Virus record (IMG/VR): IMGVR_UViG_3300028864_000019
Location: 47,870-111,869 of that record
Source: a virus
Strand: one strand, 5' to 3'
Length of the DNA stretch: 64,000 nucleotides
Shown here: one piece after another, positions 9,794-59,716 of the stretch
Position numbering within the stretch: the first letter of the stretch is position 1
Layout: each line of letters begins with the position of its first letter
Made by a program: the position numbers and the translations under genes
Notes under the pieces: generated by a model
What the model was told of the DNA's origin: nothing
Database searches by the model: none
What the model saw: only the letters and a program-made list of their open reading frames with translations

Positions 9794-9828
9794 ATTTTTA
9801 TACCTCTTTCTTTTTTATTTTTTTTAAT

Positions 9829-10187: not shown

Positions 10188-10215
10188 AAAAGAAAAGGAA
10201 CTTATTAAAAGCTCC
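10188..10215 (-). terminator. rho-independent terminator
   Basis: Minus strand: AGGAGCTTTTAATAAGTTCCTTTTC. An imperfect stem ends in a T-run directly after the gene at 10229-10474. Confidence 0.6.
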
Positions 10216-10228
10216 TGAATTATAATTA

Positions 10229-10474: not shown

Positions 10475-10622
10475 TTTTATATTCCTTTCTTTTTTATATA
10501 CTTTTTATTACGGTTTATTTTACTAATTTTAACATACTATTTCATATTCTTCTAATATTATTTTATACGCTCTAGACCTTCTTTTGTTAACTATATAAAA
10601 TCTTTATTAGTTTTTATTAGAT

Positions 10623-10652
10623 TTTAAAAAGGAACTACAAAAAAATAGTAGT
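10623..10652 (-). terminator. rho-independent terminator
   Basis: Minus strand: AACTAC, a T-rich loop, then GTAGTT followed by CCTTTTT. It lies after the coiled-coil gene at 10669-11100. Confidence 0.65.
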
Positions 10653-10668
10653 TATCTCTTTATTACTA

Positions 10669-28384: not shown

Positions 28385-29467
28385 TTAACTCCAAAAATCT
28401 GCATTCATCATATCTCGTAATTTTTGTTTTGTTGCAACTGGCTCTTCCTTGTTTGTATCTTTAGATGTGGTATTATTACTTTTATTTTTACTACCATTTT
28501 CTCTAAATTCAAATACTTTTTCTTCATCTTCTAATTCTTCGTCTTTCATATTATCATAAGCTTCTTGAAGAGTTTGTATATATTCATCTGGACTTGTTAC
28601 CCCACCAAGTACCATTAAATTCTTACTGCCATAATCGGTCTTTCCCCACATTTTAGCTTTAAATAATTCTTTCCATTCATCTTTATCATATATACCCTTT
28701 TCAAATATACCTCCCATATAAGAACAATCTAAATTATTAGGCATTACAAAAGGAGAATTATCCATACTATAATCTACTGCATCTACTAATGATTTGAATT
28801 TATCAGCCAATGGTAATATTACTTTATATTTGTTTGCTGAATTAATCATTTTAGTATCATTAATATCTACTGCCCCTTCTTGTAATTCATATGAATCTAA
28901 AATTAATTTCATACATAGTTTGTTAAATTCGTCTTCATTTTGCATTTTGTCATTGTCTATATATTGATAAGAATTGACTACCCCTTGAACTCTTAATTTT
29001 GTAATTTTTGAATGTAATTTAAGTGCATTTCCTATTGTTGTCTTTCCTTCTGACAATGCTGGCATAGCAACAACTAAATTAATTGCTAATTTTGAATTTA
29101 AATGCCTTAATACGTTAGTTAATGTTGTAAGTGAACCACCTCCAAATCCGCCACCACTAGCTAGATATATTGACGCAACATCATAATTATCTGTTTTATT
29201 AGCAAGGAAATTTATAAATTTACTTCTATCTTTTGATATGCTTTCTTGTGCTACATCTTGATTCCTTCCTGTACCACCACCATTTATTGCCAAGCCATTA
29301 ATAGTTGAATTATAGTGTTTTAATCTCTTCATTTCATTTATGTTAGAGTTCACAAATACACCATCGTATACCGATTGTAATACGTTTTCTGAATTATCTA
29401 ATAAATCCATGAAAGTATCTAATAGTTTATTACCTGTACCACCTGTCCCAATATTTAGTACGTTCAT
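28385..29467 (-). CDS. tubZ: TubZ-like tubulin/FtsZ GTPase (type III partition motor)
   Basis: The N-terminal strand and first glycine loop (MNVLNIGTGGTGNK) and the tubulin signature GGGFGGGS (residues 105-112, in LASGGGFGGGSLTTL) identify a tubulin/FtsZ GTPase of the TubZ/RepX branch. The PALSEGKTTIGNA segment fits the region after the signature. The 360-residue length fits TubZ. The last residues are a charged linker plus a short tail (KQKLRDMMNADFWS), where TubZ proteins bind TubR-DNA. It lies 3 nt after tubR. By family it polymerises with GTP and moves plasmid DNA by treadmilling. Confidence 0.88.
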   Translation of the reverse strand: MNVLNIGTGGTGNKLLDTFMDLLDNSENVLQSVYDGVFVNSNINEMKRLKHYNSTINGLAINGGGTGRNQDVAQESISKDRSKFINFLANKTDNYDVASIYLASGGGFGGGSLTTLTNVLRHLNSKLAINLVVAMPALSEGKTTIGNALKLHSKITKLRVQGVVNSYQYIDNDKMQNEDEFNKLCMKLILDSYELQEGAVDINDTKMINSANKYKVILPLADKFKSLVDAVDYSMDNSPFVMPNNLDCSYMGGIFEKGIYDKDEWKELFKAKMWGKTDYGSKNLMVLGGVTSPDEYIQTLQEAYDNMKDEELEDEEKVFEFRENGSKNKSNNTTSKDTNKEEPVATKQKLRDMMNADFWS

Positions 29468-29470
29468 TTC

Positions 29471-29734
29471 TTAACACATCCCCTTTAATTCTAATAATTC
29501 TTTCATTCCCTTTTCAGTAACAATATAACTTTTTGCATTTTTAACTGATAATCCGTTTTCAATCAATCCTTGGTTGAAAAAATTCAATAATGTATTAGTT
29601 ACTTTTGTTATACTCATTCCTGTTTTATCCATAATTTCTTTTTTAGTAGTACCATTTGTTTTTATATTACCTTTGGTTTTATCATTTTCACTTAAAATAC
29701 TTTGAAGTATTTTAAAATCGTTTTGCGTTATCAT
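29471..29734 (-). CDS. tubR: TubR-like winged-helix centromere-binding protein
   Basis: An 87-residue winged-helix protein (ILQSILSENDKTKG...TTKKEIMDKTGMSITKVTNTLLNFFNQGLIENGL) directly upstream of tubZ. TubR proteins are small wHTH dimers that coat the centromere repeats and link them to TubZ. Assignment rests on size, fold and position. Four spaced repeats (29869-29982) lie just upstream, as expected for its binding site. Confidence 0.8.
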   Translation of the reverse strand: MITQNDFKILQSILSENDKTKGNIKTNGTTKKEIMDKTGMSITKVTNTLLNFFNQGLIENGLSVKNAKSYIVTEKGMKELLELKGMC

Positions 29735-31434: not shown

Positions 31435-32604
31435 ATGGCATATGAACAAATATCAATGTTAATGGATAATACAAAACAATTAAATAACGTAAACTATACT
31501 TATAAATCATCGGCACTTATAGAAAGCTCTTATGAATTAACAATTACAGAACAAAGAATAATCGCATTAGGATGTAAAAAATTACAGCCAATATATATAG
31601 AAAACAGACTAACACCGAATGATTTACAAAAAGTTTTAGGAGCAATGAAATTCAGTTTGATTGAAATATCTGTGTCGGAATACAGAGAAGAATATGGAAT
31701 TGTTGGTAATAAAGTATATGATTCAATACAAAATGCTACTGATGATTTATATGAAAAAGAAATAGTATATTTTGATGATAATGGTAAACTTTGCAAAAGA
31801 CGATGGATGTCATCGGTTAATTTTGATAGAAAAAATGGCAACGTACAAATAACCTTTAATATAGATCTTATTTTAGATTTATTAGTTTTTAACGGTAAAT
31901 TTGTTGCTTTGTTTTTTGATATGTCGCAAGATATAAAAAGTAAATATTCATTTCGTATGTATGAAATATTGAAAAATAGTGCTTATTTAGGAAAAATGAA
32001 AATTTCAGTCGAAGAATTTAAATTTAAGCTAAAGATAACGGATAAGTATACTGATTTTGCAGATTTAAATAAAAAGATAATAAAGCCCAATTTAGAAGTA
32101 ATAAATTTATATAGTGATATATCTCTAGAATATAAAACAATTAGGTCTGGAAGGAATGTAAAGTGGTTATGTTTTAATATAACTAAAAAAAGAAATACTA
32201 CTTTTTCAGTAGATAGCAAGTTTAAAGAAAAGATACCTTCGGCATTTAATGAAATTTCTACTGCATTAGAAAAATATAATTGTGAATTAACTTCTACTGA
32301 CGCACAAACATTATTCGATACAGCTATTGAAGTGACTAAAGAGAAATATCCAGATACAAATCCTGTTAATTACATTTTAGAAAAAATCAACTATATGGAT
32401 AGCTATATTACAAAAAAACCTATAGATAATATCATTGGATTCTTAAAAAACGCAATGGAAGAAGATTATGGATTAAAATCAATTGAAGTTCAACAAAAAC
32501 AAACTAAATTCAATAATTTTGAAGGAAGAGAATATAATTTTGATAAACTTGAAGCTGGGTTATTAGGATATGAAGAAGTTGCAATAGAAGATGTAACTAA
32601 ATAA
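31435..32604 (+). CDS. repB: RepB-type (Rep_3 family) replication initiator
   Basis: The start of the mature protein (YKSSALIESSYELTITEQRIIALGCKKLQP) is the classic opening of Rep_3/RepB initiators. The first winged helix covers about residues 20-140. The second (about 160-260) contains SKYSFRMYEILKNSAYLGKMKISVEEFKFKLKI...DFADLNKKIIKPNLEVINLYSDI, the motif of the DNA-binding half. The C-terminal 120 residues are less conserved. GAGGTG precedes ATG 31435. Iterons lie directly upstream and overlap its presumed promoter, so autoregulation is likely. Confidence 0.92.
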   Translation: MAYEQISMLMDNTKQLNNVNYTYKSSALIESSYELTITEQRIIALGCKKLQPIYIENRLTPNDLQKVLGAMKFSLIEISVSEYREEYGIVGNKVYDSIQNATDDLYEKEIVYFDDNGKLCKRRWMSSVNFDRKNGNVQITFNIDLILDLLVFNGKFVALFFDMSQDIKSKYSFRMYEILKNSAYLGKMKISVEEFKFKLKITDKYTDFADLNKKIIKPNLEVINLYSDISLEYKTIRSGRNVKWLCFNITKKRNTTFSVDSKFKEKIPSAFNEISTALEKYNCELTSTDAQTLFDTAIEVTKEKYPDTNPVNYILEKINYMDSYITKKPIDNIIGFLKNAMEEDYGLKSIEVQQKQTKFNNFEGREYNFDKLEAGLLGYEEVAIEDVTK

Positions 32605-35721: not shown

Positions 35722-36114
35722 TTAAAATTGTTCGATAGAAAGTCGATTACAGGCTTAAGATGAGGTTTTAGAGTAAATAAGGTACAAGTTGTCTAGTTAA
35801 GAATCTAAATCGAAATAAGGCATTATTTTTGAGTTTCTTGTAATAAACTTTAGATGCCGATGAAGAGTTAAAAATATGGGTTGGTTTTAATTTTAAAATG
35901 TAAGGTGATAAGTTCTTCGTTAAATTGTGTAGAACGTCTTAGAAAGTGGGAAGTCGAGTTTTTGTCGAAGAATGTGGATAAGGTATGATAATAGTAAAAG
36001 CATTAAGCATTATTATAAAACAAATTAATGTATAAAATAAAACCCGATATAATGCGTGTTTTATTGGGATTTTGAAATGAGATGGATAATAAAAAAATAA
36101 AGGAGAGTAAAATA
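35722..36114 (+). other. gene-free spacer before the CoiA-like gene
   Basis: No gene. It holds AAGTTGTCTAGTTAA (about 35787) and ACGTCTTAGAAAGT (about 35936), both resembling parts of the spacer after repB. AAATTAATGTATAAA lies at 36022-36036, and GATATAATG (about 36047-36055) could be a -10. It may encode a small structured RNA; nothing decisive is visible. Confidence 0.4.
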
Positions 36115-38685
36115 ATGGATAATATAAATATTTGGTTTGCCAGAAATAAAGATGGTGATATAGTTACAATAGACAAAGTTAATGAGGATAATAGATATGA
36201 AGAATATAAGTGTCCAATATGTGAAAGTAAACTTATTTCAAAATTAGGTGATATTAATAAACATCATTTTGCACATAAAGATGCTAGTAAATGTGATAGT
36301 GAGGCTCAAGTCCATTTCTTTGTTAAGAACGAATTAATAAAACAAGGATATGTTTTTAAAGTTAAATTAGATGATGAAATTAAAGAATTTGTCTGTAAAG
36401 AAGTTTTAATAGAACAATCTTATGAAACTGAATTTGGTACGTATAGACCTGATATAACTATAATAACTAAAAATGATGAAACTATTTACTTTGAAATAGC
36501 CAACACTAATAAAAAGAAAATAGAAGAGTATTTGGATATTTGGGTGAAACTCAATAATATAGTTGTTGAAGTTGAAACGAAAGAATTGATAGATGGAAAT
36601 ATAACTAATGAATTTAAAGCTTTATTCTATGAGGGGAAATGCTTTAATATCAGCAAAGACGAAAATGAATATTACGAACTAATAGGAAAAGTTAAATTAA
36701 ACAAATATAAATATCCAATAGAGCAAGTTAATAAACTAAGCTGGTTATGGAAAGATATTAATAGATATTTATTAGGAGAATTAGAAATATCTGAGTTAAG
36801 TGATTTGATACAAGCTATAGAAGATGAAGAATTAAGAGAAATAGTAGTTTCCATATTGAGAAAAAATAAATGTACAGGAATTATGGAAGATTATATTAAT
36901 TATAATGTGAATAATTTAAAAAATATTGAAATAAGTGAAAATTGCAATATTTCAGTAGATATTCCAACAAAATATTGTGATAAAATTTATGGATATTATG
37001 ATTTGAAATATCTACTAATCGACTATGATAAAACGTTCTACGATAGGGTTAAATTTTATTCTATAAATGAAATAAGTAAGAAAACATTAAAGAATATCGA
37101 AAGATATAAGAAATTTATAGCAGTAAGTAATATAATAAAGGAAAAATATATAGAAGACGAAATAAAAATAAGTTTCCATGAAGATTCAAATATATATCTA
37201 TTTTATTATACAACATTTATATCTAATATAAAAATGGATGATGAAATAGATGATATTGTGACTAATATTAAGAATGAAATAAACAAAGTAGATAAAAAAA
37301 AGATTAAAGCACAATTTGAATTCAATACATTATTAAATATGTGTAAGAATGGTGAGATAAGTTTGGAAGCCCTTGCAGATAATATAAAAAATAACAAATA
37401 TAAAGAATATGTTGAAACAACATTAAAAATTAATAAAAATATTTTAAATGATTATCTAGATTTTAATATAAAAAAACACACAGAAATTTTAAATAATATA
37501 AATAGTTCAATATCATTTAAAACAGAATTACCAAGATTAATTCATGATAGAATTTATGAATATTTTATTTTATCAGTGTATTGGGATGATTCTATTATTT
37601 TAAGTAATAAAATTATAAATTATGATACAAAAAATATATTATATGTATTAAACTATTTAAATGTATTTAATTACATTAAAGAAAAATATAATGAATATAC
37701 TATTAAATATACTTCTTGTCGTGATAATTTTGAATTATATAAAGATTCCATAAAGATATTTGATTATAGTTTAAAGGAAGATATTAAAAATATATATAAT
37801 AAAATAGATAAACAGATATATTCTAGGGATAATTACATTAAAGATATGCAAGTTTTATGTAATTATATAAATAATAACTACAAATGCATATGTGATGCAA
37901 ATCTAAATGATTATAATACATTATTGTCATTTACTTATTATTTTACAAATGACGTATGTAGGAAATATAGTTTAGGAATAGGAAGATGTGTAGATTATAA
38001 TTCAAATACAGAATATTATATAGATCATATAAACAGAATGATTAGAAATGACTATGATGAAATTGTATGTGAAGAAATAAATAAAATAGATTCTAATGTA
38101 AAAACCATACAATTAAATAATAGAGTATATTTAACATATGATACTGGATCGGTTATTACAGAAGATTATTTTGTATTTAATGAATATATTGAGGAAAATA
38201 CCTTAAATACAATAATAAATTTTTATTATGAAAATATAAAAATTTCAGAAAAATATAATAATATATTTAAAGATTATTATATAACATGTAAAAATATTAA
38301 AAATAATTATTCTATTATATTACTAAATAATGGAATAGAAATTTATTACAAAGAAGATTCAGTTTTTAAATCAGCTTATTTTAATATAGATTCTATAGAT
38401 AATATCATTAATAATAAAGAATTTAAATTAGCATTAATTGAAAATGTTGAAGATTTTGAAAATTATAATAAAATAAAAGAATTAGTAGATAATTTAAATC
38501 ATAAATATATTAAAGTTAATAAACAGTGGAGATTTAAATTCAATGTAAGACGTAATACTATAGATATATATGAATCTATATCTAACTTTTTTAACTCTAT
38601 ACAAATTAATGAAATTAAATTTCAAGATATAGAAAAGAAAATAAGTGATAAGATAAGAAATTATGTTTATAAGATGGAGGAGTAA
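36115..38685 (+). CDS. CoiA-like nuclease-domain protein with long C-terminal extension
   Basis: ATG 36115 with AAAGGAGAG is preferred to the ATG at 36082. Residues of about 1-65 match the CoiA zinc/beta domain: WFARNKDGDIV, CPICESKLISKLGD, HHFAHKDASKCD. The nuclease-like core follows (about 70-165): EAQVHFFVKNELIKQGY, YETEFGTYRPDITIIT, TIYFEIANT (D...E-x pattern). The remaining 690 residues are rich in N, I, Y and K and match nothing I know. CoiA family proteins act on DNA during competence; this phage form could be a DNA-processing factor. The DUF5659 gene follows at 1 nt. Confidence 0.65.
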   Translation: MDNINIWFARNKDGDIVTIDKVNEDNRYEEYKCPICESKLISKLGDINKHHFAHKDASKCDSEAQVHFFVKNELIKQGYVFKVKLDDEIKEFVCKEVLIEQSYETEFGTYRPDITIITKNDETIYFEIANTNKKKIEEYLDIWVKLNNIVVEVETKELIDGNITNEFKALFYEGKCFNISKDENEYYELIGKVKLNKYKYPIEQVNKLSWLWKDINRYLLGELEISELSDLIQAIEDEELREIVVSILRKNKCTGIMEDYINYNVNNLKNIEISENCNISVDIPTKYCDKIYGYYDLKYLLIDYDKTFYDRVKFYSINEISKKTLKNIERYKKFIAVSNIIKEKYIEDEIKISFHEDSNIYLFYYTTFISNIKMDDEIDDIVTNIKNEINKVDKKKIKAQFEFNTLLNMCKNGEISLEALADNIKNNKYKEYVETTLKINKNILNDYLDFNIKKHTEILNNINSSISFKTELPRLIHDRIYEYFILSVYWDDSIILSNKIINYDTKNILYVLNYLNVFNYIKEKYNEYTIKYTSCRDNFELYKDSIKIFDYSLKEDIKNIYNKIDKQIYSRDNYIKDMQVLCNYINNNYKCICDANLNDYNTLLSFTYYFTNDVCRKYSLGIGRCVDYNSNTEYYIDHINRMIRNDYDEIVCEEINKIDSNVKTIQLNNRVYLTYDTGSVITEDYFVFNEYIEENTLNTIINFYYENIKISEKYNNIFKDYYITCKNIKNNYSIILLNNGIEIYYKEDSVFKSAYFNIDSIDNIINNKEFKLALIENVEDFENYNKIKELVDNLNHKYIKVNKQWRFKFNVRRNTIDIYESISNFFNSIQINEIKFQDIEKKISDKIRNYVYKMEE

Positions 38686-38686
38686 T

Positions 38687-38848
38687 ATGGATATTCAAAA
38701 AATATTTAGTAAAAGAGTGGCAATCCAATTACTCAATATGGGAAATATAATACTATACACAGAGCAGAATAAAAAGTTCCCAAAACTTAAAGTATTCTGT
38801 TTTGTGAATACTAATAAATTAAACAATGATTGGAATTTGCTAAAATAA
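38687..38848 (+). CDS. DUF5659-like small protein (53 aa)
   Basis: The sequence IFSKRVAIQLLNMGNIILYTEQNKKFPKLKVFCFVNTNKL shows the DUF5659 pattern: S-x-x-hA-x-L-hxxG, N-x-xxPxxxVFxF. GGAGG precedes ATG 38687, one nt after the CoiA-like stop. Function unknown; 50320-50610 is a longer relative. Confidence 0.65.
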   Translation: MDIQKIFSKRVAIQLLNMGNIILYTEQNKKFPKLKVFCFVNTNKLNNDWNLLK

Positions 38849-38889
38849 ATATACAAAATTCAAATTATAATTCAAAGGAGACAAAATAT

Positions 38890-41658
38890 ATGGCGATGAA
38901 TAAACAAATTAAACTATATTCTATAAACTTAGGAATGGTTAAAACAGGAGATGAAAAGCAATTATATTCAATGAAGTATGTAAATGATGGCTCTATGTTC
39001 AGAATTAAGCAAAATTTATCAAATAGAATAAAGAATAAACTGGATACTACAGAGTGGACAAGCGAATGTAATACTATTTTTAAAAAGGAATTAAAAGAAA
39101 ATATATTATATAAAATTATTAATCGAGAAAATAAAAAAATAACTAAAATGATACATAACACAATTAATGATTTTAATGAAGTTAGATACGTAGATAGTAA
39201 ATATTTTAAAGAAACTAATGTAATTGCATTCTTTGATAATGTGCTTACAAGAACATTAAAATTAGAAAGTGAAGAACCTACTTTAGACTTTATAGTAATT
39301 GAAGTAGGAAATACTGATATGCTAATAGTAAAACAAGTAATAGAAAAAGGATTAATTATAATAAGTAGAGAAATGGAATATGATAAGGTAATTTCAGTTG
39401 ATAATAAATATAAATTCTTTACTGCTGGAGCTGGGCAAACTCGTCAAAAGAAATTTATGATGATAAAGGAAGATGTTTGGAAAACTTACGAAGAAACATT
39501 AATGTGTGGATTGACTATAGAGCAAGTCAATAAAGTAGGGGGAATGAACATAAATAAGTTTAATGCATATTTAAGTTTGAATAATTCGGCTTCGGAAGTG
39601 GTAGAAAATTTTGATATAGATAAATGTATTGTAGTGGACGATTTTACAGAAATAATAAATGATACAGTTGATTATATTACAAGAGATGATGAAGTAGATA
39701 ACGGGATAACAGAATATACTACAAAAGGAGGCAAGAAAGTCAAACGAAAAAATAAAAAAACTGATTGGAGTATAAAAAGAGAAAAGAAAGATATATCTTT
39801 TGATTTTATGGATGGAGCAGGAATTTGTTTAAGTAATGTATTCAATAAAAATACTCAAATAAGATTACCTTGGTTTAAGGGCTTGTTATGTCCCATAAAT
39901 TATAAAAAATACATAGAAGAAAATAAGGATTGTTCTGTAAAGGTAAAAGACATATATGGAAAAGAGTATGATATTTTAGAAGATGATATTCAAGTTATAT
40001 TTACAAAAAGTCAGTTCAAAATGTGGAAATTCTATAAAGATTGGAATGAATATAAAACATATTTCAAGAAATATGAATGCACATGTAATAAATGTATGGA
40101 AGATGAAGACAAATTAAAGAATATGAGAATAAATTATCAAATGCTTCAAACTCTTACAGAAATGAGTGATGAAGAAATAGAATATTTAACTAAAGATGTT
40201 AAATCGTTAGTTAATGAAGTACATAGTAGTAAAGATAAACAACTTGAATTTTTAGGAGCAACCCTTGAAACAAAATATAGGGATTATATGCAAGAAATAA
40301 TAAGGTTGTACCCCGAGATACTAACAAGCAAGTACATAAAAAAACAACTAAGTGATACAATTACAAGCTTTAAGAAGGAAGCAAATAGTGGAAGAATCAA
40401 ACTTCATGCAAAAAGAACTTTTATAATACCAGACTTAATACATTTTATGAGTGTATTATTTGGAAATGGACAAGACTATGCACTAGGTGAAAATGAAGTA
40501 TTCTTCAATACATATAAAGATAGTAAAAGACTAGCATTATTACGTTCTCCTCATTTAAGCCGAGAATGGTGCTTAAGAAACAATATAAGTAATGAAAAAA
40601 CAAAGTACTTTAAAACTAATGGAATATATGTGAGTGCTAAAGATTTGGCTTATTTGGTATTAATGTTCGATGTAGATGGAGATGAAGCCTTAGTTGTTGA
40701 GGATTGTGAGGAACAAAAATGGTTATTAGATTTGGCTGAAAAACAAATGAGTGAGTTAGTTCCTTTATATTACGAAATGGGTGGGGGAGAAGGAAAAGTT
40801 ATAAATCCTATAAACATATTCAACTCTTTAAAATTTGTATATGAGAAGTCCAATATAGGTAAGGTTAGCAATACATTGACAAATATATTTTCAAAAGATG
40901 ATTCTGAAAAAAATATGGATAACATAAAAAAGCTATGTGCATATAATAACTGGATAATTGATAGTGCAAAAAAATTAGAGCTTCCTAAACTGCCAAAAGA
41001 TATAAAACAACTAATGAATAATAAATTATATCCATACTTTTTTCAATTTGCAAAGAACAAAAAAAGAAATGAGTGTAGAGATATAGGAAACGGAGTAATT
41101 GATAGAATTTGTAAGAGTATTAGCAATATAAAAAATACAGATTTTGATTATTCAAAAGGGTTTGGAAGATTTAATTTAAAGAAATTATTACATAATAACA
41201 AAATAGAAATAGATTATAATGTTATTGATTTTTATTTGAAGTTAGAAAATAGTACAAGAATACTTATTAATCAATATGCAACTAAATATAAGGAGGAAGA
41301 TGCAGAATTTAATTATAAAGAATTAGCTTATAATCAAGCTAAAGAAGATACCTTAAAATATTCAAAAGAGATGAATATTGATTATTTAGATTTAATAGAT
41401 ATGATAATTAAATATGCATTTAATGAGGACGAAATGAAACTAGCTTTTATATTTAATGTATTTGGAGCAGTAATAATCAATAATCTAAATAACAATTTAG
41501 AATTATCATTAAATGATGAGACTGTTGAAATGTGTGATTGTTGTGGCAAAAGATTTGAAAAGAAGTCAAATAATGCAAAATATTGTTATAAGTGTGCTAA
41601 AGACATAGAAAAAGAACTAACAAAGGAAAGAGTAAGAAAATTTAGAAATAAAGAATAA
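38890..41658 (+). CDS. single-chain two-barrel RNA polymerase, YonO/QDE-1-like
   Basis: ATG 38890 with AAAGGAG gives 922 residues. Two blocks match the two double-psi barrels of YonO-type phage RNA polymerases and eukaryotic RNA-dependent polymerases. Block one is DGAG (308-311), QIRLPWFKG (K330). Block two is LLRSPHLSREW (about 558-568), then FDVDGDEALVVED with the catalytic acids D594, D596 and D598. NIGKVSN follows, as in the RdRp family. A zinc ribbon near the end (CDCCGKRF...CYKC) and one in the middle (CTCNKC) are extra. By family it makes RNA without host subunits; its place before the late genes suggests late transcription. Confidence 0.75.
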   Translation: MAMNKQIKLYSINLGMVKTGDEKQLYSMKYVNDGSMFRIKQNLSNRIKNKLDTTEWTSECNTIFKKELKENILYKIINRENKKITKMIHNTINDFNEVRYVDSKYFKETNVIAFFDNVLTRTLKLESEEPTLDFIVIEVGNTDMLIVKQVIEKGLIIISREMEYDKVISVDNKYKFFTAGAGQTRQKKFMMIKEDVWKTYEETLMCGLTIEQVNKVGGMNINKFNAYLSLNNSASEVVENFDIDKCIVVDDFTEIINDTVDYITRDDEVDNGITEYTTKGGKKVKRKNKKTDWSIKREKKDISFDFMDGAGICLSNVFNKNTQIRLPWFKGLLCPINYKKYIEENKDCSVKVKDIYGKEYDILEDDIQVIFTKSQFKMWKFYKDWNEYKTYFKKYECTCNKCMEDEDKLKNMRINYQMLQTLTEMSDEEIEYLTKDVKSLVNEVHSSKDKQLEFLGATLETKYRDYMQEIIRLYPEILTSKYIKKQLSDTITSFKKEANSGRIKLHAKRTFIIPDLIHFMSVLFGNGQDYALGENEVFFNTYKDSKRLALLRSPHLSREWCLRNNISNEKTKYFKTNGIYVSAKDLAYLVLMFDVDGDEALVVEDCEEQKWLLDLAEKQMSELVPLYYEMGGGEGKVINPINIFNSLKFVYEKSNIGKVSNTLTNIFSKDDSEKNMDNIKKLCAYNNWIIDSAKKLELPKLPKDIKQLMNNKLYPYFFQFAKNKKRNECRDIGNGVIDRICKSISNIKNTDFDYSKGFGRFNLKKLLHNNKIEIDYNVIDFYLKLENSTRILINQYATKYKEEDAEFNYKELAYNQAKEDTLKYSKEMNIDYLDLIDMIIKYAFNEDEMKLAFIFNVFGAVIINNLNNNLELSLNDETVEMCDCCGKRFEKKSNNAKYCYKCAKDIEKELTKERVRKFRNKE

Positions 41659-42246
41659 TCATGTAACGGAATAGAAAGTATACTCTAACACGCATGGTTA
41701 TCACGTTTATAAGTGGTCAACATAAAAAATATATTTTATAAAAATGGGTTATAAGCTAGTGATACCAACGTTTGTAGCGTTTTGGTCAAATTCTGTAAAT
41801 GGAAAAGAAAAGACTGAGAAGTCGTAAATTATCAGCACAATGTCTAAGTGTGCAAAGGAGTTGTATTGATATTAAAGTACAATCCAGTAGGGTAGATTAT
41901 GCCTAGCATATTTGCCCTACATAAAAAATAAAACAAATTAAATAAAATAAAAAGATAGTATTGCTCAATTTTGAGTTTATTATACCAACGCCCTTAAGTG
42001 GGCGAAATACCTTTCATTAATTCATTTTTCATAACTCCCTTTATTAATATTTTAATCTCTCTCCTGACATTGGCAAGGTACAAACAGGTATTCTTGCCTT
42101 GTTGGAGAAAGAAATAAGTAGGAGTAATATGAGTTTGTAATAAATTAATGTATAAAGAAATACAGATTTAATAAGATTAATTCAACTTAATTGTTGTTTT
42201 AAATAAATTATAGGGTTGCGAACTGATTACGCAAGGAGGAATAGAA
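41659..42246 (+). other. 590-bp spacer with hairpins, before the late genes
   Basis: No gene. It holds the hairpin ACCAACG...CGTTTTGGT (41764-41786, like one at 20166-20191), GTAGGG...CCCTAC (about 41889-41922), CGCCC-TTAAGT-GGGCG (41989-42004), AAATTAATGTATAAA (42142-42156) and a hairpin touching the ribosome binding site (42216-42234). It is a candidate control region for late transcription. Confidence 0.5.
42216..42240 (+). promoter_or_regulatory. hairpin abutting the ribosome binding site of the first late gene
   Basis: TTGCG-AACTGATTA-CGCAA is followed with no gap by GGAGGA. The hairpin could help or hinder ribosome loading on 42247-42717. Confidence 0.5.
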
Positions 42247-43193: not shown

Positions 43194-44669
43194 ATGAGCA
43201 AAAAGAATAAGGATAATGATATAATTTTAAGTTTTGTCGGTGGAAGTAGGGACGATATTTGTGGATCTGCTTTATTAATTAGCTATCCTATAGGAAATGA
43301 CAAACATAAATGCGTTTGTCTAGAATGTGGCATGATACAAGGAGAATCAAAACCAGAGATAGAATATTCAATGAATAAAAAAATGGTTGAAAATATTCCA
43401 GTAGGAGGTATTTCGGGAGTGTTTTTAATGCACTCCCACGTCTGAGTAGACCATATTGGGAACACACCTATATTTGGACAAGATATATTCAAAGGTGAAA
43501 TAATTACAACAGAAGAATGTTTAATGATATCTAAAGAATTATTAAAAGATAGTGTGTATTTACATGATTGTTTAATAAAAGGTTTAAAAGCAAAAGGGAA
43601 AAGACCTAAAAACTTATATACTGAATTAGATATGTATAAGATGTTAGAGAAGGTAAAAACAGTTGAAACACATCAAGTATATAAATTTGATGATTGGTTA
43701 AGTTATGAATTTTATAATTCTGGACATGTATTAGGTGGTACTCAATTGAAACTTACTTTTAGACTACCTAACAATAATATAAAATCCTTAGTTTACACAA
43801 GCGATTTGGGATCAGATTACAATTTAAAATATAAACCATTTGTAAAGAAAAGAGATATAATTCCTAAGGCTTCAATGTACGTTTTTGAGGCAACTTATTC
43901 AAACTCTGAAAAGTGCTTTGATAAAAATTTAGTAGAAAAAGAAAGAAATGAACTAAAAGAAACTTTAACTAAATATTTAAAAAGTGGACACCGAGTATTT
44001 TTTCCTTCCTTTTCTTTCGGGCGTACCCAAGAGTTACAATTTTTAATAAATTCGTTTTTTAAAGATGAAGAATGGTTTAATGAAATACCAGTAACAATTG
44101 ATGGAAGATTAACTAATTCTATATGTGATACTTATAGCAAGATATTAAAATATGATGAATTTGAGGACTGGGAGAGAATAAAAAACTGGAAGAATTTTCG
44201 TTATAATAAAGAATATAAAGGTACTTTGGGAATATTATCTAAAAGAGAATGTGGAATTTACATAAGTTCTAGTGGATTTGTTCAACCTAAAACACGTAGT
44301 TGTGACTATGTTAAAAATTTTATGGGAGTTACAGGAGATCTAATTTGTTTCGTAGGATATTACGGAGCTGAAGGTTCAATTTCTCATGAATTAGTTACTA
44401 GACCAATAGGCACTCCTATTAAAATTGATGGAAGTACATTAATAAAAAGTTGTGATGTTCTTACTCAGAAAACATTTTCGAGCCACATTCAACAAGAAGA
44501 AATTTTTAGCTACTGGAGTCAAATAAACACAAATAAGATTCTAATACACCATTGTACTGAAGAAGGAAAAATTGAAATGAAAGAAAAGGGAACTGAATAT
44601 CTACAAAGTAAAAATAAAACAACTAAAATTGTAGGAGTAAGTAAATTTGCTTCACAATTCATTTTATAA
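43194..44669 (+). CDS. beta-CASP metallo-beta-lactamase RNase, interrupted by an in-frame TGA
   Basis: The two frames on either side of TGA 43443-43445 are in phase and form one 491-codon gene. The N-part ends at the metal-binding HxHxDH motif, which reads H80-S-H82-V-TGA-V-D-H. Removing six bases (for example CTGAGT) gives HSHVDHIGN exactly. The C-part has the beta-CASP landmarks: RVFFPSFSFGRTQELQFL, SSSGFVQP, GYYGAEGSISHEL and SSHIQQEE...ILIHHC. Intact relatives (RNase J/CPSF-type) cut or trim RNA. As written the enzyme is broken at its active site unless the stop is bypassed. No second ribosome binding site for the C-part is evident. Confidence 0.75.
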
Positions 44670-45019: not shown

Positions 45020-45698
45020 AATGTGAACAAAGGCATGTACTAGAAATAGACGTGACCTTTCATTAAAAGAACTGTTTTATAAGGAGTAAAAGAATAACGA
45101 TCCTTTCCCTAGTGGGGGAATAATAATACCATGATTTGCTTGGCTATTGGGTAATACATAGTCTGTTATTCAAAGATTATAAAGAACGAGGTATAGATTC
45201 CCAACAAATATTGAAGTGAGTTAGAAACTCAGACAAAGAAGAATTTTGCCCAAGTGGGAATAAGGAAATCAATACTAAAAATTTACTAATAACATACTAA
45301 ATACTACAAACAGTGAATTTTATTAGTTGGTAATATACTTACCTCATACTCAATACTTTAAGTTGAGAGAACGACAATGAAGTATTTGCCTTGTTACGGG
45401 TAAATATGGAGTCTTATTTAGAGTTTTAGGTAAACTTAGGTGTAACTAGAGATTTGATCTTGAAAAATAAAAACCTATGATACAAATACGCTTCACAATG
45501 TGCGACAAAAATACATTGTATTGATAGATGGAGGCATTCTAGCTGTACCATCGTGACTAATTGTTCATTCTAGAATGATTAGATATTGGGTTGGAATATA
45601 TCCACACAAATAATGAATTGAGTTATGATGGCTCTAACAAAAAAGATGTATTCCCTTTTGTGATATATGGGAGGTTAAATAATAATATCACATTACAC
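45020..45698 (+). other. 680-bp gene-free region before the tRNA
   Basis: No gene with a ribosome binding site. It holds small hairpins of the form CCC-NAGT-GGG (TTCCCTAGTGGGGGAA at about 45105-45120; GCCCAAGTGGG at about 45248-45258) and the palindrome CATTCTAGAATG (about 45573-45584). A non-coding RNA or remnants of further tRNAs are possible; none folds clearly by eye. Confidence 0.45.
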
Positions 45699-46362: not shown

Positions 46363-47598
46363 ATGGAAGATGAAAGATATTTAAAATCGGAAATCGAGTC
46401 AAGAGAAAAATATATACATAGAATGTATTCTAACAAAACACAATTTAATATGATTAATAGAGAAATTGCAGAAGTAATTAATCAAGAACTTGGAACTGAC
46501 TTCCAAGAGAGTTATTTCCGTGGTATATATAAAATTTATGAAATTGCGTGTGCTGAATGTTTGGAATCTTTAAAAGGTGATAAAGCAGTAAAAAATAAAA
46601 TAGACGAAGTCACTGAATTGATTGGTGAGTTAGATGTTAAAAAGCAATTAATTCGTAATGATACTAATAAACTTAACAGAATAAAGAAAGACTTTATAAA
46701 GAATATTGAAATTGCAAATTACATAAATGAGTATATTGATAGAGAATGTGAAAACTTTCTACCTTTATCTTATAAAAGAATTGAAGATGAATCAGAAAAA
46801 ACACTAATTTGTTGCATTTCAGATTGGCATATAGGATACATTATTAAGGATTATAGAGGAAATAGTTATAATTATGAAATAGCTAAAAAGAGATTATCTA
46901 GATTCTTATCTGAAATAGAAAAAGAAATACATAAAAATGATATATCTAAAGTTATAGTAGTGCAAGCTGGAGATTTAACTGAAGGAATTTATATGCGTGG
47001 ACAAGATCAATCATATAGTTGTGAATTTAATAGTAATGAACAGATTGTTATGGCTGAGGAATTGCTATATGGATTTATTACAAGTATATCAGAAATGAAG
47101 GTAAATGTAGACTTATATTCAGTAGGTGGAAACCATCAGCGTGGAAACCAAGCTTATAAAGATGGAAATATTGAAGGAGATAACAACAATTATACCATAG
47201 TTAAGAATTTAAAGAAGTGGTTTACTTTAGCTAAGAATGATAGAGTCAACGTTTGTGATATTGATTTTAAAGAAGATTGTGGAGAGTTTGACTTAGGTTT
47301 TGGAGTTATAAAAGTTAAACATGGTGATAAAAGTCCTAAAGAAGATAAGAAATTCTATGACACAGAAACAAGTATGAATAATATAAAGTATGCTATGTTA
47401 ATAAGAGGACATTATCATAATTTTGGTGTAAGTTCACAAAATAATGGTGGGTACGTAACAACTATAGGTTCATTATTTGGTATGAATCCATATAGTGTGG
47501 ACAAACTTCAATGTACAACACATGCAAGTCAAACTCTAATTTTAGTTAACTATGATGGAGTTGAATATATAAGAGATATAAATTTACAAATCAATTAA
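46363..47598 (+). CDS. phage metallophosphoesterase (calcineurin-like)
   Basis: A helical N-terminal region (1-135) is followed by a complete metallophosphoesterase core: SDWHIGY (D-x-H), VVQAGDLTEG (GD), GGNHQRG (GNH), VKHGD and RGHYHNF (GHxH). All metal ligands are present. Such phage enzymes are often annotated as DNA repair or recombination exonucleases (SbcD-like), but the substrate is not shown. It precedes the ClpP-like gene and may be cotranscribed with it. Confidence 0.85.
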   Translation: MEDERYLKSEIESREKYIHRMYSNKTQFNMINREIAEVINQELGTDFQESYFRGIYKIYEIACAECLESLKGDKAVKNKIDEVTELIGELDVKKQLIRNDTNKLNRIKKDFIKNIEIANYINEYIDRECENFLPLSYKRIEDESEKTLICCISDWHIGYIIKDYRGNSYNYEIAKKRLSRFLSEIEKEIHKNDISKVIVVQAGDLTEGIYMRGQDQSYSCEFNSNEQIVMAEELLYGFITSISEMKVNVDLYSVGGNHQRGNQAYKDGNIEGDNNNYTIVKNLKKWFTLAKNDRVNVCDIDFKEDCGEFDLGFGVIKVKHGDKSPKEDKKFYDTETSMNNIKYAMLIRGHYHNFGVSSQNNGGYVTTIGSLFGMNPYSVDKLQCTTHASQTLILVNYDGVEYIRDINLQIN

Positions 47599-47628: not shown

Positions 47629-48225
47629 ATGGGAGAAGTATATCAACAACGGAATTTATTGCTAGAAGAAATCAAATTAGTAGATTACAAAGATAATAAT
47701 ACACTATATATTGATGATGAAATTACAACTGAATTTATAATAATGTTATCAAGACAATTAAAGAAACTTGCCACTAAACAACTATCATTGAGCAAGGAAG
47801 ATAGAACACCAATAAAATTAATCATAGCTTCTCCAGGAGGAAGTTTAGTTGATGGAATGCATTTTTGTGACCTAATGGAATATTACATTAATAAAGGGAT
47901 AGAAATTCATACATATTGTACAAGCTATGCTTATTCAATGGCATTCAAAATATTTATATGTGGATCTAAAAGATTTGTATATAAGAGAAGTGATTTAATG
48001 TGACACCAATGGAATAGATTTAGATACGGTACTGAGACATATCAAGATACTGTAAATGATAGAGAGCAATGCGATAGATGGTACAAGTTAATAGTTGATT
48101 TAATAACTGAGAAAACAGGTATAACTAAAGAACAATTTGATAGCTATACAAAGAGTAATAAAGACTTTTATATGGATGGTGCTACTGCTTTAAAATTAAA
48201 TGTTGCTGATGAAATAATTATATAA
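47629..48225 (+). CDS. ClpP-like protease with an in-frame TGA next to the catalytic His
   Basis: The frames before and after TGA 48001-48003 are in phase and together make 198 codons, the usual ClpP length. The N-part has the ASPGGSLVDGMHFCDLM motif and the nucleophile region SYAYSMAF. KRFVYKRSDLM-TGA-HQW aligns with the usual 'RxAxxNSxIMxHQ', so TGA replaces exactly one residue just before the catalytic His. The C-part continues with the expected helices and YMDGATALKLNVADEI. Phage members act as head or regulatory proteases. As written the product is truncated before its His. TGA C is a leaky stop context. Confidence 0.75.
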
Positions 48226-52877: not shown

Positions 52878-54251
52878 ATGGCAGATTTTAAGACAAAAGA
52901 TTTAGATGAGCAGATGAAAGGGAAAACTAGATGTACTAAGTGTGGAACAATACTTAGTAATACAAATAATTTTTACACATCGAGTTCAAAATTACATACT
53001 TATACTGGAAGAGTATCTTTATGTAAAGATTGTTTAACTAATTTTTATGTATCACTTTTAGAAGAAACTAATGATATAAAAATATCAATATATAAAATAT
53101 GTGAGTTATTGGATTTTGTATATCTCGAAGGAATATACAATAGTTCATTAACAGAAGCAGGATGGAATAAAGATTTCACTATAGTACAAAATGGATTAGA
53201 AGTATGGAAAAAATACATAAAAACAATAAATTCTCTTAAAAATTATAAAGGTTATGCTTTTGAACATGGAGATAAAATTGATTTAGGAATGAGTATTGTT
53301 GAGGATGATACTACCAAAGAAAAAGAAAATAGCTTAATTATATCTAAGCCTAAAGAGTTTACTGACGAAGAAATTGAACAACGAGTAAGAGATAAACAAA
53401 ATAAAGAAGATATTATTAGAATAATCGGATATGATCCTTTTCAGAATGAAATAGAAGAAGATAAATCAAAAATGTATGCCAAGTTGATAAATATGCTAGA
53501 TGAAGATAGTCAAAATGATGAGCTTAAAAATAGTGCAATAATAAGTATTATAAAAGGTCAAAATCAAGAAAATAAAATAAATGATGTTATAACAAATTTA
53601 AGTTCTGATATAAAAAGTATAAAAGACAATATTGGAACTATTAAAAGCTTAACCGACACTAAAGAAAAACTAAATAAAAGTTTATTGGCTTTAGCGAAAG
53701 ACAATAAGATTAGTGATTTATATAGTGGTCATAAAACAATCGGTGCAAATACATTAACGGGCATGGTTAAAAAGTTAAAAGAAATAGATTTAAAAGAAGC
53801 ACAAGTTAATTTATTTGATATTCAGACTTCTAATGGTATGTTACAAACAGCAAGATTATCCGCAAAAGCAATTGTAGAAAATCTTAATTTTGGCGATGAT
53901 GATTTAATAGATATGGTAAAATTCCAAAACGAAAAAATAAATTTTTATGAACAAGAATACAGTAAATTAAGAGAAGAAAATAGAAAATTAAAGGCGATTT
54001 GCTCTTTCAATGATGTAGATTATAAACAAGATGTTTTAGAAACAGATTATTATGATGTTTTGGACTACGGAGACATAAAGGATGGACAAGACTCTATTCA
54101 AAAGCAGAATTATAAAGAAGACCAAATAAGTTTTAATAATATGGTTGAGGAAATAGTACCTATTGACACTATGGAGCATATTGATAAGGTTATTAAAAAT
54201 AAAAAAGAAATTGAAAAACAAAAAATATTGAATAGTGTTATAAGTGAATAA
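52878..54251 (+). CDS. zinc-finger protein upstream of terminase (possible small-terminase analogue)
   Basis: The N-terminal zinc finger is CTKCG...CKDC (about 18-48). A helical middle and a long coiled-coil region (about 210-385, with SDIKSIKDNIGTIKSL and NFYEQEYSKLREENRKLK) follow, then an acidic end. It lies directly upstream of the large terminase, where a DNA-recognising small subunit is expected, but no known small-terminase fold is recognisable. Confidence 0.45.
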   Translation: MADFKTKDLDEQMKGKTRCTKCGTILSNTNNFYTSSSKLHTYTGRVSLCKDCLTNFYVSLLEETNDIKISIYKICELLDFVYLEGIYNSSLTEAGWNKDFTIVQNGLEVWKKYIKTINSLKNYKGYAFEHGDKIDLGMSIVEDDTTKEKENSLIISKPKEFTDEEIEQRVRDKQNKEDIIRIIGYDPFQNEIEEDKSKMYAKLINMLDEDSQNDELKNSAIISIIKGQNQENKINDVITNLSSDIKSIKDNIGTIKSLTDTKEKLNKSLLALAKDNKISDLYSGHKTIGANTLTGMVKKLKEIDLKEAQVNLFDIQTSNGMLQTARLSAKAIVENLNFGDDDLIDMVKFQNEKINFYEQEYSKLREENRKLKAICSFNDVDYKQDVLETDYYDVLDYGDIKDGQDSIQKQNYKEDQISFNNMVEEIVPIDTMEHIDKVIKNKKEIEKQKILNSVISE

Positions 54252-54442: not shown

Positions 54443-56337
54443 ATGGGTATCACAATTATAAATAAAGGTAATTTGACTCAAAAAAAGTTAGAAGGTTATT
54501 TAAAATACAATGAAATACTTGTATGGGGAAGAAGAAATCCTGTAAAGTTCGCAGAATTAGTGTTGGGACTTGAACTTATGGATTATCAAAAATATACATT
54601 TCAAGAATCATGGAGCAAACAATTTGCATTATGGTTGATGTCTCGTAATGGAGGCTGAGTAAATCAACTTTAAGTTCTCCATTTATAATGACAAAAATGA
54701 TGTTATTTCCAAACTTTCAAAGCTTTATACTTTCATTAACCGCAAGTCAAAGCCAAGATACCTTTCTTTGACAACTTAAAATGGAGTCAATAGCAAAAAA
54801 ACAAATAGAATCTTTTTGTGGATTAACAGATATATTTTTAGGAGAAGTTTCTGCAAGTGCTAACCATGATGGATTTGTTCACTCTCCTCAAGGATTTAGA
54901 TGTAAGCTATTTAACAACAGTCAAGTTACTACTGTTTCTGGGGAAGAAGATAATATTAGAGGGAAAAGATCAAATTTAAATTTGTATGATGAAAGTGGTT
55001 TCATAAGTGAAAACTATATTTCAGTTACAAAATCATTTTGTACACAGGATTCGTCGTTTAAGTTAGGTGGTGGTATAAACACCGAAACTATACCGATGAA
55101 TATTCCTAATCAATTATTGTTTTGTTCATCTGCTAGTAGTACGGATTCTGCATTTTATACATTATATAAAGAGTGGGCAAAGTTAATGTTTGCAGGAAGT
55201 AAAGACCATTTTGTAGCTGACTTAAATTGTGAGGTTATAATAGGAGCTACATTAAAAGGTAAAAAATTAAATATACCATTGTTATCACAATCTAAAGTTG
55301 ATGATGAAATAAGGTCAAACTCAGAGAAAGCAAATCGAGAATATTTTAATCGTTTTGATGCTGATGGTGGAAATAAACAACCTATAAAACGTGCAGTAAT
55401 TATGAAAAATTCATCAGTTAGAAAACCATTATTAATTAATGAAGGAAATATAAAAAGACACATTGCAATTTCATATGATCCAGCACATGATTATGATAAT
55501 TCAGCGACATCAGTAGGAGAATATATATATGATGAACAAGTTGGATGGAAATTAATAATTCAAAACTGTGTAAGTCTTGTGGATTTAGGGAAAAAGAAAA
55601 AAACTCCAATGAGAACGCCAGAACAAATTAAAGAGATAAAACAAATGCTAATAAATTATAACGGAAAAGGCAAGGCTGATTATGAGAATATAGATTGTTT
55701 ACTAGTTGATGCTGGTTCAGGAGGTGGTGGTCCGATAATCGCAGATTATTTTATGGACGACTGGGAAGATGAACAAGGAAATAAACATAGGGGATTAATT
55801 GATAAAGAAGCCTGTGCTGAACATGTAAATTCTTATCCGAATGCAGTAGGAAAATTAAAATTAGTATCACCTAAAAAATATAAAACAGAAATGTATGATG
55901 ATTTTGTAGAATTATTAAATTTAGGACTAATTGAATTTACAGATAATTATGATATGAAAGGGTACTTAAGTCTACCACAGGAAGGAAAAGAGATTGAAGA
56001 AATTGATGAGGATACGAATGAAAAGAAAAAGGTAAAATCAATAGATTATAAACAATACAATCTATCTTGGGACGAAGAATTGGCATTAAAGCAAATTGAT
56101 AACGCAAAAGAAGAATTAATTGCAATAAGAAGACAAGGTGATGATATAAATTATAAATATGAACTGCCTCCTGATAAAAAGAGTAAAATGCATGATGATA
56201 GAGCTTACACAATGGTAATGTTAGCTTGGCATTTAAAAAACCTTAGACGTGACGGAATAGTTAATAAGCAAGCACCACAAGTTGATTGGTCAACAGCACC
56301 AACATTTGTTTCATCAGTAAATTTCAATTCTATATAA
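54443..56337 (+). CDS. terL: terminase large subunit, interrupted at Walker A and at a second TGA
   Basis: Part 1 (54443-54655) ends ...LMSRNGG at TGA 54656. The next part is in another frame and begins KSTLSSPFIMTKMML. Taking out five bases (TGAGT or CTGAG) restores the Walker A SRNGGKST. It continues ILSLTASQSQDTFL to a second, in-frame TGA (54769-54771) and then KMESIAKKQIESF; taking out nine bases of CTTTGACAACTT gives TFLKMES. The long third part carries the ATPase motif LNLYDESGF and the nuclease acids HIAISYDPAH, CLLVDAGSG and DDRAYTMVML. Intact family members pump phage DNA into heads. As written the motor is broken twice. Confidence 0.8.
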
Positions 56338-58132: not shown

Positions 58133-59716
58133 TTGGACGAAGATAAAATAATTTTATATAGTAATAACAAAATAGAAATATCAGAATCTCAAGATGATTC
58201 ATATATGAATGTAAAATTCATTATATGTAATTTTGATCCCAATAGAAATAATGTAATGTTAAATAGAGATACTATAGAAAATTGGTTAAATACTTTAGTA
58301 ATGAAGCCACTAGTTGGATTAATAAAACCAAATAAGGATGATGAGTTGGATTTTACTTCACATCAAGCAAAAAAAGTTTATGAGTTAATTAATGGACAAC
58401 TTCAAGAAAAATTAAAGTTTGGAACTGATGCCTTTGGAGTATTTGATACTGTTCAAATTGAAACTATTGATGAGGTAGAATATATTACAGCTAATTGTAG
58501 AGTTTGGCGTAGGTTTGAAAATTGTTGCAAAATAATACAAGATAGATTTGATAGTGATGAACCATTAAATACATCTTGGGAAATATCAATTGTAAATAGT
58601 AATATAAATGCAATAGGTGGAAAACAAGTTAAAGTTATTAACGATGGTATTTTTATAGGACATGCGTTGCTTTCTAAATATACAAGTCCTGCATATGATT
58701 GTAGTGGTATGTTAGAAGTTGCCGAAGAAACACAACAAGAAGACGAATTTGCAGAAGCATTTATAAACGATTTAAGTGAAATCAATAGTTTTGAACAAAT
58801 ATCAGAGAACCAAGAAAACATAGAAACAAGCATTCAGTCTGATGAAAAATCAGTTGAAAATAAATTAAACGAAAACATAGAAGAAAAAGGAGGAATTGTC
58901 GATATGGCAGAAAATAAAAACAAAACAGAAGTGTCATCTATAACAACAAATGATTTATATGATAAATTAAGAGTTGCTATTAATTCAATAGACACAAACA
59001 AATGGATTTGCATATCAAGAGTATATCCGTATGAATTTAGAGCAGTAGGGTATGATTGGAATGCAGAGAGCGAAGATGACTTTATAGAATATGCTTACAC
59101 TGTTAATTCAGATGAAAGTATATCTATTACAAGCCAAACACCAGTTAAAATGACTTTTGTTCCATCAGTTCAAATTGATGAACAAATTCAAGAAATTCAA
59201 GCACAATTAAATGGTGTTAATGATGAATTATCAACTAAGAACGAGGAACTTTCTACAAAAATAGATGAAATTGTGAAACTTGGTGAGACAATTACAAGTC
59301 AACAAGAAACTATTGCAGAAAAAGAAAAGGCTATAGCTGAATTAGAACCACTTAGAATTGAAAAGGCTGAAGCTGATGCAAAGAAATTAGAAGCCGAAAT
59401 TGCAGAAAAAAAAGAAAACTTAAAGAAAATGGCTTTATCTAGTAAATATTTTACAGAAGAAGATATTGAGAATTCAGAAGCAATTAAAGAAGCAATTTCA
59501 AATTTAGACGAAAAACAAATTAAATGTCTAATAGCTGAAAGAGTTGTTGAACAAGCTTCAAAAGTAGAAATAACTACTAAAGAAGAAAAAGCAGAAGTTG
59601 AAACAAGTGAAAAAGAAGTAGAAGTTTCTACTGATTTAAACGCAAATACAAACTATAAGTATGAAAATTCAAGTTCTGCATTATTAAATTATGCTAGAAG
59701 AAATATTAAAAGATAA
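58133..59716 (+). CDS. prohead protease/scaffold fusion-like protein
   Basis: A TTG start at 58133 with AAAGGTGG. Residues of about 1-200 form a beta-rich domain (MNVKFIICNFDPNRNNVMLNRDTIENW...TSWEISIVNS...FIGHALLSKYTSPAY) with the layout of phage head-maturation proteases. Residues of about 340-500 form a long coiled coil (QIQEIQAQLNGVNDELSTKNEEL...) typical of scaffolds. An internal ATG at about 58904 with GGAGGA could give a separate scaffold-only product. It lies between portal and capsid genes. Confidence 0.65.
   Translation: MDEDKIILYSNNKIEISESQDDSYMNVKFIICNFDPNRNNVMLNRDTIENWLNTLVMKPLVGLIKPNKDDELDFTSHQAKKVYELINGQLQEKLKFGTDAFGVFDTVQIETIDEVEYITANCRVWRRFENCCKIIQDRFDSDEPLNTSWEISIVNSNINAIGGKQVKVINDGIFIGHALLSKYTSPAYDCSGMLEVAEETQQEDEFAEAFINDLSEINSFEQISENQENIETSIQSDEKSVENKLNENIEEKGGIVDMAENKNKTEVSSITTNDLYDKLRVAINSIDTNKWICISRVYPYEFRAVGYDWNAESEDDFIEYAYTVNSDESISITSQTPVKMTFVPSVQIDEQIQEIQAQLNGVNDELSTKNEELSTKIDEIVKLGETITSQQETIAEKEKAIAELEPLRIEKAEADAKKLEAEIAEKKENLKKMALSSKYFTEEDIENSEAIKEAISNLDEKQIKCLIAERVVEQASKVEITTKEEKAEVETSEKEVEVSTDLNANTNYKYENSSSALLNYARRNIKR

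What the first reader, a model, noticed from the sequence alone, without database searches (positions are those of the whole stretch)
38890..41658. Phage-plasmid-encoded single-chain RNA polymerase of the two-barrel (YonO/QDE-1) class
The protein has a DVDGD catalytic loop (594-598), a matching second-barrel KG (K330) after DGAG, and an 'RSPHLS' block before the acids, in the same order as in YonO-type phage polymerases and eukaryotic RNA-dependent polymerases. It also carries an extra C-terminal zinc ribbon. Multi-subunit features and sigma-binding parts are absent. It lies right before the late operon, so it could transcribe late genes. The family relation comes from motif order; the role is inference.
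Basis: partly seen in the sequence, partly recalled or inferred. Interest (0 to 1): 0.85.

Follow-up and report, generated by a model that had tools for sequence, protein, structure and literature searches.

The report
YonO-type phage RNA polymerase cassette
The gene encodes a one-piece RNA polymerase of an already known phage type (YonO of Bacillus phage SPbeta), and closely related phages carry very different members of the same enzyme class in the same slot, which offers a natural test of how these enzymes find their promoters.

Summary
Window 38890-41658 encodes an intact 922-aa protein with RSPHLS, K330-G and D594-V-D596-G-D598 at the stated positions. It is a full-length homologue of SPbeta YonO (33.6% identity over 902 residues), a single-chain DNA-dependent RNA polymerase already shown biochemically to transcribe SPbeta late genes. 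An AlphaFold model (pLDDT 90.7) has plant RDR2 and fungal QDE-1 as its best solved matches. The C-terminal zinc ribbon is not extra: YonO and nearly all relatives have it. Late genes homologous to YonJ, YonG, YonF and YonD follow in SPbeta order, so late transcription is the best role. The enzyme is therefore a new member of a known kind.

Two things go beyond that. Phages whose terminase is 85-88% identical carry deeply different YonO-class polymerases in this same slot, so the polymerase gene has been exchanged. A structured RNA absent from Rfam sits directly behind the polymerase gene in the six members of this sub-clade and is missing from the relatives with other polymerases.

In passing: an in-frame UGA in the catalytic motif of the downstream beta-CASP gene is conserved in a diverged relative, with strong purifying selection on both sides. 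It may be a programmed recoding site.

The parts
38890..41658 (+). YonO-type single-chain RNA polymerase, 922 aa
   Evidence: tblastn to SPBc2 YonO 33.6% over 902 aa; phrog_8308 E 2e-232; AF2 pLDDT 90.7 with best PDB matches RDR2/QDE-1
39877..39882 (+). K330-G331, lysine of the first (beta-like) barrel
   Evidence: invariant in 54 relatives
40543..40560 (+). RSPHLS block, residues 552-557
   Evidence: R552, P554, L556 invariant; position checked
40669..40683 (+). DVDGD catalytic loop, D594/D596/D598
   Evidence: invariant in 54 relatives; equivalent triad proven catalytic in YonO (PMC5467207)
41533..41595 (+). C-terminal zinc ribbon C882/C885/C899/C902
   Evidence: family trait of the YonO clade
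41790..41853 (+). conserved structured RNA directly 3' of the polymerase gene (two helices, 5 of 9 pairs with compensatory changes)
   Evidence: found only in six members of this polymerase sub-clade among 90 sources; no Rfam family
41887..41920 (+). terminator-like hairpin closing the polymerase cassette
   Evidence: z-score -5.2 for 41785-41925
36022..36036 (+). copy of the genome-wide intergenic repeat AAATTAATGTATAAA in front of the operon that holds the polymerase (candidate operator)
   Evidence: 21 copies with up to 2 mismatches in the window against 6.8 expected
38663..38848 (+). small ORF at the position of yonP, directly before the polymerase
   Evidence: position and size only
46363..47598 (+). 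YonJ-like exonuclease/metallophosphoesterase, start of the inferred late block
   Evidence: phrog_284 E 7e-65; match to SPbeta yonJ E 1e-12
52878..54251 (+). YonG-like late gene
54443..56337 (+). terminase large subunit (YonF position), interrupted in this strain
58133..59716 (+). YonD-like late gene
   Evidence: phrog_3313 E 3e-30

Best explanation
The gene encodes a YonO-type single-chain, two-barrel, DNA-dependent RNA polymerase of a roughly 220-kb, AT-rich phage, probably a phage-plasmid of a Clostridiaceae-like host. Most likely it is made from the early or middle operon 36082-41658, finds one or a few phage late promoters between 41.9 and 46.3 kb, and transcribes the structural and packaging genes as a long operon without the host enzyme or sigma factor. 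K330 (first barrel) and D594/D596/D598 (second barrel) form the active centre. Shown here: homology, conserved residues, predicted fold class, gene order. Inferred: DNA dependence and late specificity (by homology to YonO), the promoter position, and the absence of sigma. In addition, the polymerase gene and the RNA element behind it behave as an exchangeable cassette: close relatives carry other YonO-class lineages in the same slot.
For: Full-length homology to YonO. Catalytic residues invariant. AF2 model pLDDT 90.7 with 19 of the 20 PDB matches at E<=0.001 being RDR2/QDE-1, prob 1.00, and viral matches annotated RNA-dependent RNA polymerase. YonO proven as late-gene RNAP (PMC5467207). Downstream order YonJ, YonG, YonF, YonD as in SPbeta. 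Tree: window with L028-L031, 100/100, inside the clade that also holds SPbeta YonO. Cassette: TerL relatives G004/G005/G006 and the late-gene relative G007 keep homologous flanks on both sides but carry PMBT24-type (G005, G006) or a third lineage (G004, G007) at this site. No second YonO-class polymerase was found by tblastn in the composite genome.
Against: No activity, promoter or transcript data for this protein. Model coordinates were not returned, so the K330 to D594-598 distance could not be measured. Sequence-profile search against PDB found no RNAP catalytic chain, as expected at this divergence. This strain's terminase gene is interrupted, so the phage itself may be defective in lytic growth.
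Confidence: 0.86

Rival explanations
1. It is an RNA-dependent (or dual) polymerase like QDE-1, making double-stranded RNA, as several database records name its relatives.
For: Foldseek best matches are RDR2 and QDE-1; several phage relatives are annotated 'RNA-dependent RNA polymerase'.
Against: Those names are fold- or motif-based. The closest tested relative, YonO, strongly prefers DNA template and NTPs (PMC5467207). The gene sits in front of late genes as in SPbeta.
Confidence: 0.06
2. It is a functional YonO-type RNAP but serves other genes (middle genes, a virion-delivered early transcription role, or plasmid-state genes) rather than the late operon.
For: A conserved RNA and terminator-like hairpin follow the gene; no promoter has been mapped; the late interval is not identical to that of SPbeta.
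Against: The downstream block is homologous to the genes YonO transcribes in SPbeta.
Confidence: 0.1
3. The locus belongs to a decaying element and the polymerase is a relic.
For: Terminase and a ClpP-like gene carry stops or insertions in this strain.
Against: The polymerase frame is intact with every family-invariant residue kept; an identical sequence occurs in a second assembled contig; the neighbouring beta-CASP gene is under strong purifying selection.
Confidence: 0.05

Closest known systems
YonO of Bacillus phage SPbeta/SPBc2 (NC_001884 61356-63875)
   Same: Length class, all catalytic residues, RSPHL block, C-terminal zinc ribbon, small ORF before it, late block behind it
   Different: Only about 34% identical; no HU gene was recognised directly downstream; a different RNA follows; genome about 220 kb with a Rep3 initiator
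Polymerases of IMG/VR loci L028-L031 and Bacillota MAG locus L106
   Same: 47-49% (L028-L031) and 42% (L106) identical in alignment A2; same 3' RNA element
   Different: Neighbouring genes mostly unrelated to those of the window
Enterocloster phage PMBT24 polymerase
   Same: Same class (E about 1e-24), also followed by a histone-like gene and terminase
   Different: 24% identical over about 600 residues, no zinc ribbon; its type occupies the syntenic slot in G005/G006
YonO-like RNAP of Clostridium phage c-st (named in PMC7824862)
   Same: Reported there as a YonO-like single-subunit enzyme with both barrels, in a jumbo Clostridium phage
   Different: Not compared here: a toxin-carrying element that was not fetched
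QDE-1 / RDR2 eukaryotic RNA-dependent polymerases
   Same: Predicted fold, motif order
   Different: No detectable sequence similarity; the proven relative of the window enzyme, YonO, uses DNA templates

Membership tests
YonO-type single-chain phage RNAP | Full-length sequence homology to YonO | tested here: met
   33.6% over 902 aa, E 1e-125; phrog_8308 E 2e-232; phylogeny
YonO-type single-chain phage RNAP | DxDGD aspartate triad (catalytic in YonO) | tested here: met
   D594/D596/D598, invariant
YonO-type single-chain phage RNAP | Basic residue of the partner barrel (K330-G) | tested here: met
   invariant
YonO-type single-chain phage RNAP | C-terminal zinc ribbon (trait of the SPbeta clade) | tested here: met
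YonO-type single-chain phage RNAP | Location before the late operon | tested here: met
   gene order against SPbeta
YonO-type single-chain phage RNAP | DNA-dependent RNA synthesis; late genes lost on deletion | not testable with these tools
   needs biochemistry and genetics
Two-barrel (double-psi beta-barrel) polymerase superfamily | Fold like QDE-1/RDR2 | tested here: met
   Foldseek prob 1.00, E 1e-17 to 1e-11, model pLDDT 90.7
Two-barrel (double-psi beta-barrel) polymerase superfamily | Triad and lysine in one pocket | tested here: inconclusive
   coordinates not available; DxDGD loop lies between helix 587-591 and strand 599-604, and K330 in strand 329-335
Multi-subunit RNAP | Separate beta and beta-prime chains with sigma-binding parts | tested here: not met
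   single 922-aa chain; multi-subunit RNAP only as weak Foldseek matches, E above 0.01
Phage-plasmid | Plasmid replication and partition genes | tested here: met
   Rep3 E 3e-22, tubulin/FtsZ-family GTPase E 9e-10 with a wHTH neighbour
Phage-plasmid | No integration module | not tested
   no systematic search for integrases was made

The most novel reading that the evidence does not exclude
In a group of ~220-kb phages, the late-transcription polymerase is an exchangeable cassette: very divergent YonO-class polymerases (SPbeta type with zinc ribbon; PMBT24 type with DFDSD; a third lineage with DVDGD or DYDSD) replace one another in the same slot while the late genes stay about 76-88% identical in DNA. 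At least the SPbeta-type cassette carries its own structured RNA, which may be a cognate signal (promoter leader, terminator or regulator) of that polymerase.
Probability: 0.55. Interest if true: 0.65.

Novelty: new member of a known kind. Interest (0 to 1): 0.42.

Why it matters
The promoter that YonO-type polymerases recognise was unknown when the enzyme was described (PMC5467207). Phages that share late genes but differ in polymerase type form a natural swap experiment: DNA elements that change with the polymerase are the candidate promoters or cognate RNAs. The data also show that PHROG 8308 ('unknown function') is the YonO polymerase family, and that names such as 'RNA-dependent RNA polymerase' in phage records probably describe DNA-dependent late RNAPs.

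Tried and rejected
The repeat AAATTAATGTATAAA was first taken as a candidate YonO promoter because it recurs after the polymerase gene. Rejected: it occurs throughout the 112-kb record in early regions too, mostly intergenic and mostly on the transcribed strand, often just before TTGACA-like sites. It looks more like a repressor operator, as with MrpR/SPBRE in SPbeta, which also binds at yonP (PMC10516654). No copy with two or fewer mismatches in the 17-base form was found in SPbeta.
Sequence-profile search of PDB gave nothing useful; fold comparison was needed.
A single-sequence scan of genome contigs gave nothing; the alignment query gave 80 loci.
Reading UGA as a sense codon was considered for the interrupted late genes and rejected as a general rule: the lesions differ (in-frame insertions, a frame change, a replaced codon) and other genes, such as 56363-58111, still end in TGA.
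An SPbeta-derived late promoter motif was not attempted because the published start coordinate could not be mapped to the SPBc2 record.

Full report
What is there. Window 38890-41658 (+) is one open frame of 922 codons starting with ATG after AAAGGAG. The window is part of a 111,869-base virus record. A second contig (39,648 bases) is identical to it over its full length, and a third (130,085 bases) overlaps its right end by 22,116 bases at 100%. Together these give about 219.8 kb at 26-27% GC, close to the 218-kb contig of a relative.

Family. The protein is a full-length homologue of YonO: 33.6% identity over 902 residues to SPBc2 YonO, 34.9% to the polymerase of Psychrobacillus phage Perkons, and PHROG 8308 at E 2e-232 (that family is listed as unknown function). 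Pfam and NCBIfam have no model for it. An alignment query found 336 relatives in viral contigs and 95 in bacterial genome contigs, the latter mostly Bacillota. In 54 aligned relatives D308, G309, G311, K330, G331, R552, P554, D594, D596, G597 and D598 are invariant, and so are C882, C885, C899 and C902. A C-terminal CxxC...CxxC ribbon is present in 72 of 74 relatives and in YonO itself, so it is not an addition of this phage. It is absent from the PMBT24 and TR-TP1 polymerases.

Fold. AlphaFold2 with the 54-sequence alignment gives mean pLDDT 90.7 and pTM 0.83. Against PDB, 19 of the 20 matches at E<=0.001 are maize/Arabidopsis RDR2 and QDE-1 (E 1e-17 to 1e-11, prob 1.00); the twentieth is a phage protein, P74 gp62, and multi-subunit RNAPs appear only at E above 0.01. 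Against viral models the best matches are phage proteins named RNA-dependent RNA polymerase. Coordinates are not returned by the tool, so the distance of K330 to the aspartates was not measured; secondary structure around both is compatible (K330 in a strand, DxDGD in a loop between helix and strand).

Function. YonO is a processive DNA-dependent RNAP whose aspartate triad is required, and 37 SPbeta late genes are silent in its deletion (PMC5467207). In SPbeta the order is yonP, yonO, yonN (HU), yonK, yonJ, yonH, yonG, yonF (terminase), yonE (portal), yonD. In the window, behind the polymerase, come genes matching YonJ (46363-47598), YonG (52878-54251), the terminase (54443-56337) and YonD (58133-59716) in that order. 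I therefore take late transcription as the role; this is inference by homology and gene order.

Cassette exchange. A terminase query returned contigs 85-88% identical to this phage's terminase, and a beta-CASP query returned the relative G007. Their late regions align with the window at 76-88% DNA identity (individual genes range from about 65 to 91%), and genes on both sides of the polymerase slot are homologous. Yet the slot holds other enzymes. G005 and G006 have a 926-aa PMBT24-type polymerase (39% to Enterocloster phage PMBT24, 24% to the window) with DFDSD. G004 (923 aa, DVDGD) and G007 (1040 aa, DYDSD) have a third lineage, 32% identical to each other and barely detectable from the window protein (profile E 2e-31 and 6e-27 with alignment A1). 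tblastn found only one YonO-class gene in each of these sequences. A likelihood tree puts the window with L028-L031 (100/100) inside the YonO clade, G005 with PMBT24 (100/100), and G004 with G007 (100/100); long branches make the deep order unsure. Hence the polymerase was exchanged while the late genes were kept.

RNA element. Directly behind the polymerase gene, 41790-41853 forms two helices of which 5 of 9 pairs show compensatory change across six sequences (0 of 500 shuffles reach the covariation score), followed by a terminator-like hairpin. A covariance model finds it only behind the polymerases of the window, L028-L031 and L106 among 90 sources of 1.4 Mb; the next match is at E 2.7. It is missing from the G004, G005 and G007 stretches searched, although the non-coding DNA from about 41,927 on is shared with G004 and G007. 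No Rfam family matches it. Its role is unknown; I suggest it belongs to the cassette as a 3' or leader signal. Only six sequences support it, and the model was built from those same six.

Late interval. In SPbeta the yonN-yonK interval, where the YonO transcript starts upstream of yonK and an unannotated RNA, holds an Rfam DUF3800-VIII RNA. G004 and G005 hold skipping-rope RNA in the interval before the exonuclease. The window holds a sub-threshold drum RNA (40.2 bits against 43, E 3e-5) and a tRNA-Ser there. Small structured RNAs at the head of the late block therefore recur in phages with YonO-class polymerases.

Assessment. The enzyme is a new member of a known kind. The interest lies in the cassette exchange and the natural test it offers, and in the unexplained UGA sites noted separately.

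Noticed in passing
43194-44669 (TGA at 43443-43445): beta-CASP/metallo-beta-lactamase gene with an in-frame TGA inside an insertion of two codons in its HxHxDH metal motif. The same TGA and insertion are in relative L207/G007 (91% DNA identity, different metagenome), with dN/dS 0.09 before, 0.05 just after and 0.04 further downstream, and an 86-nt block around the TGA without any substitution (P about 0.001). A 7-bp hairpin ends just before the TGA. Possible programmed stop bypass (Val GTC before, Val GTA after) or other recoding.
   Followed up: partly
54656-54660 and about 54770: Terminase large-subunit gene carries two TGA-containing short insertions (5 nt in Walker A, 9 nt further on) in six contigs of this phage; close relatives (85-88%) have uninterrupted copies. 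Predicted RNA hairpins enclose both sites.
   Followed up: partly
47629-48213 (TGA at 48001): ClpP-like protease gene has TGA in place of the residue just before the putative catalytic His; the 86%-identical relative G007 has Cys there.
   Followed up: partly
38 sites in G000, e.g. 32821, 34157, 36022, 42142, 42737, 44672: Asymmetric 15-17-bp repeat (AAATTAATGTATAAA), mostly intergenic and mostly on the transcribed strand, often directly before TTGACA; 21 in the window against 6.8 expected. Candidate repressor operator or stoperator, comparable in distribution to SPBRE/MrpR sites.
   Followed up: partly
G005 37266-40046; G007 reverse complement 7616-10738: YonO-class polymerases with DFDSD and DYDSD, i.e. 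Ser in place of the otherwise invariant Gly of DxDGD.
   Followed up: no
45372-45481; L232 6831-6909; L213 5591-5669; L004 19409-19474 (-): drum-like (sub-threshold), skipping-rope (two strong hits) and DUF3800-VIII RNAs all lie in the interval before the late exonuclease gene of YonO-class phages.
   Followed up: partly
31435-32604; 28385-29734 (-): Rep3 replication initiator (nearest plasmid relative in Clostridiaceae bacterium 14S0207) and a tubulin/FtsZ-family GTPase with a small wHTH gene, as in TubZR partition.
   Followed up: partly
L010 983-4780; L022 1463-5278: yonO of Bacillus phages Goe14 and BUCT083 is split by an inserted gene (GIY-YIG nuclease in BUCT083), indicating a homing element in yonO.
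   Followed up: no
G000 and G003: The 130-kb contig G003 continues the window's right end at 100% identity; the phage genome is about 220 kb.
   Followed up: yes
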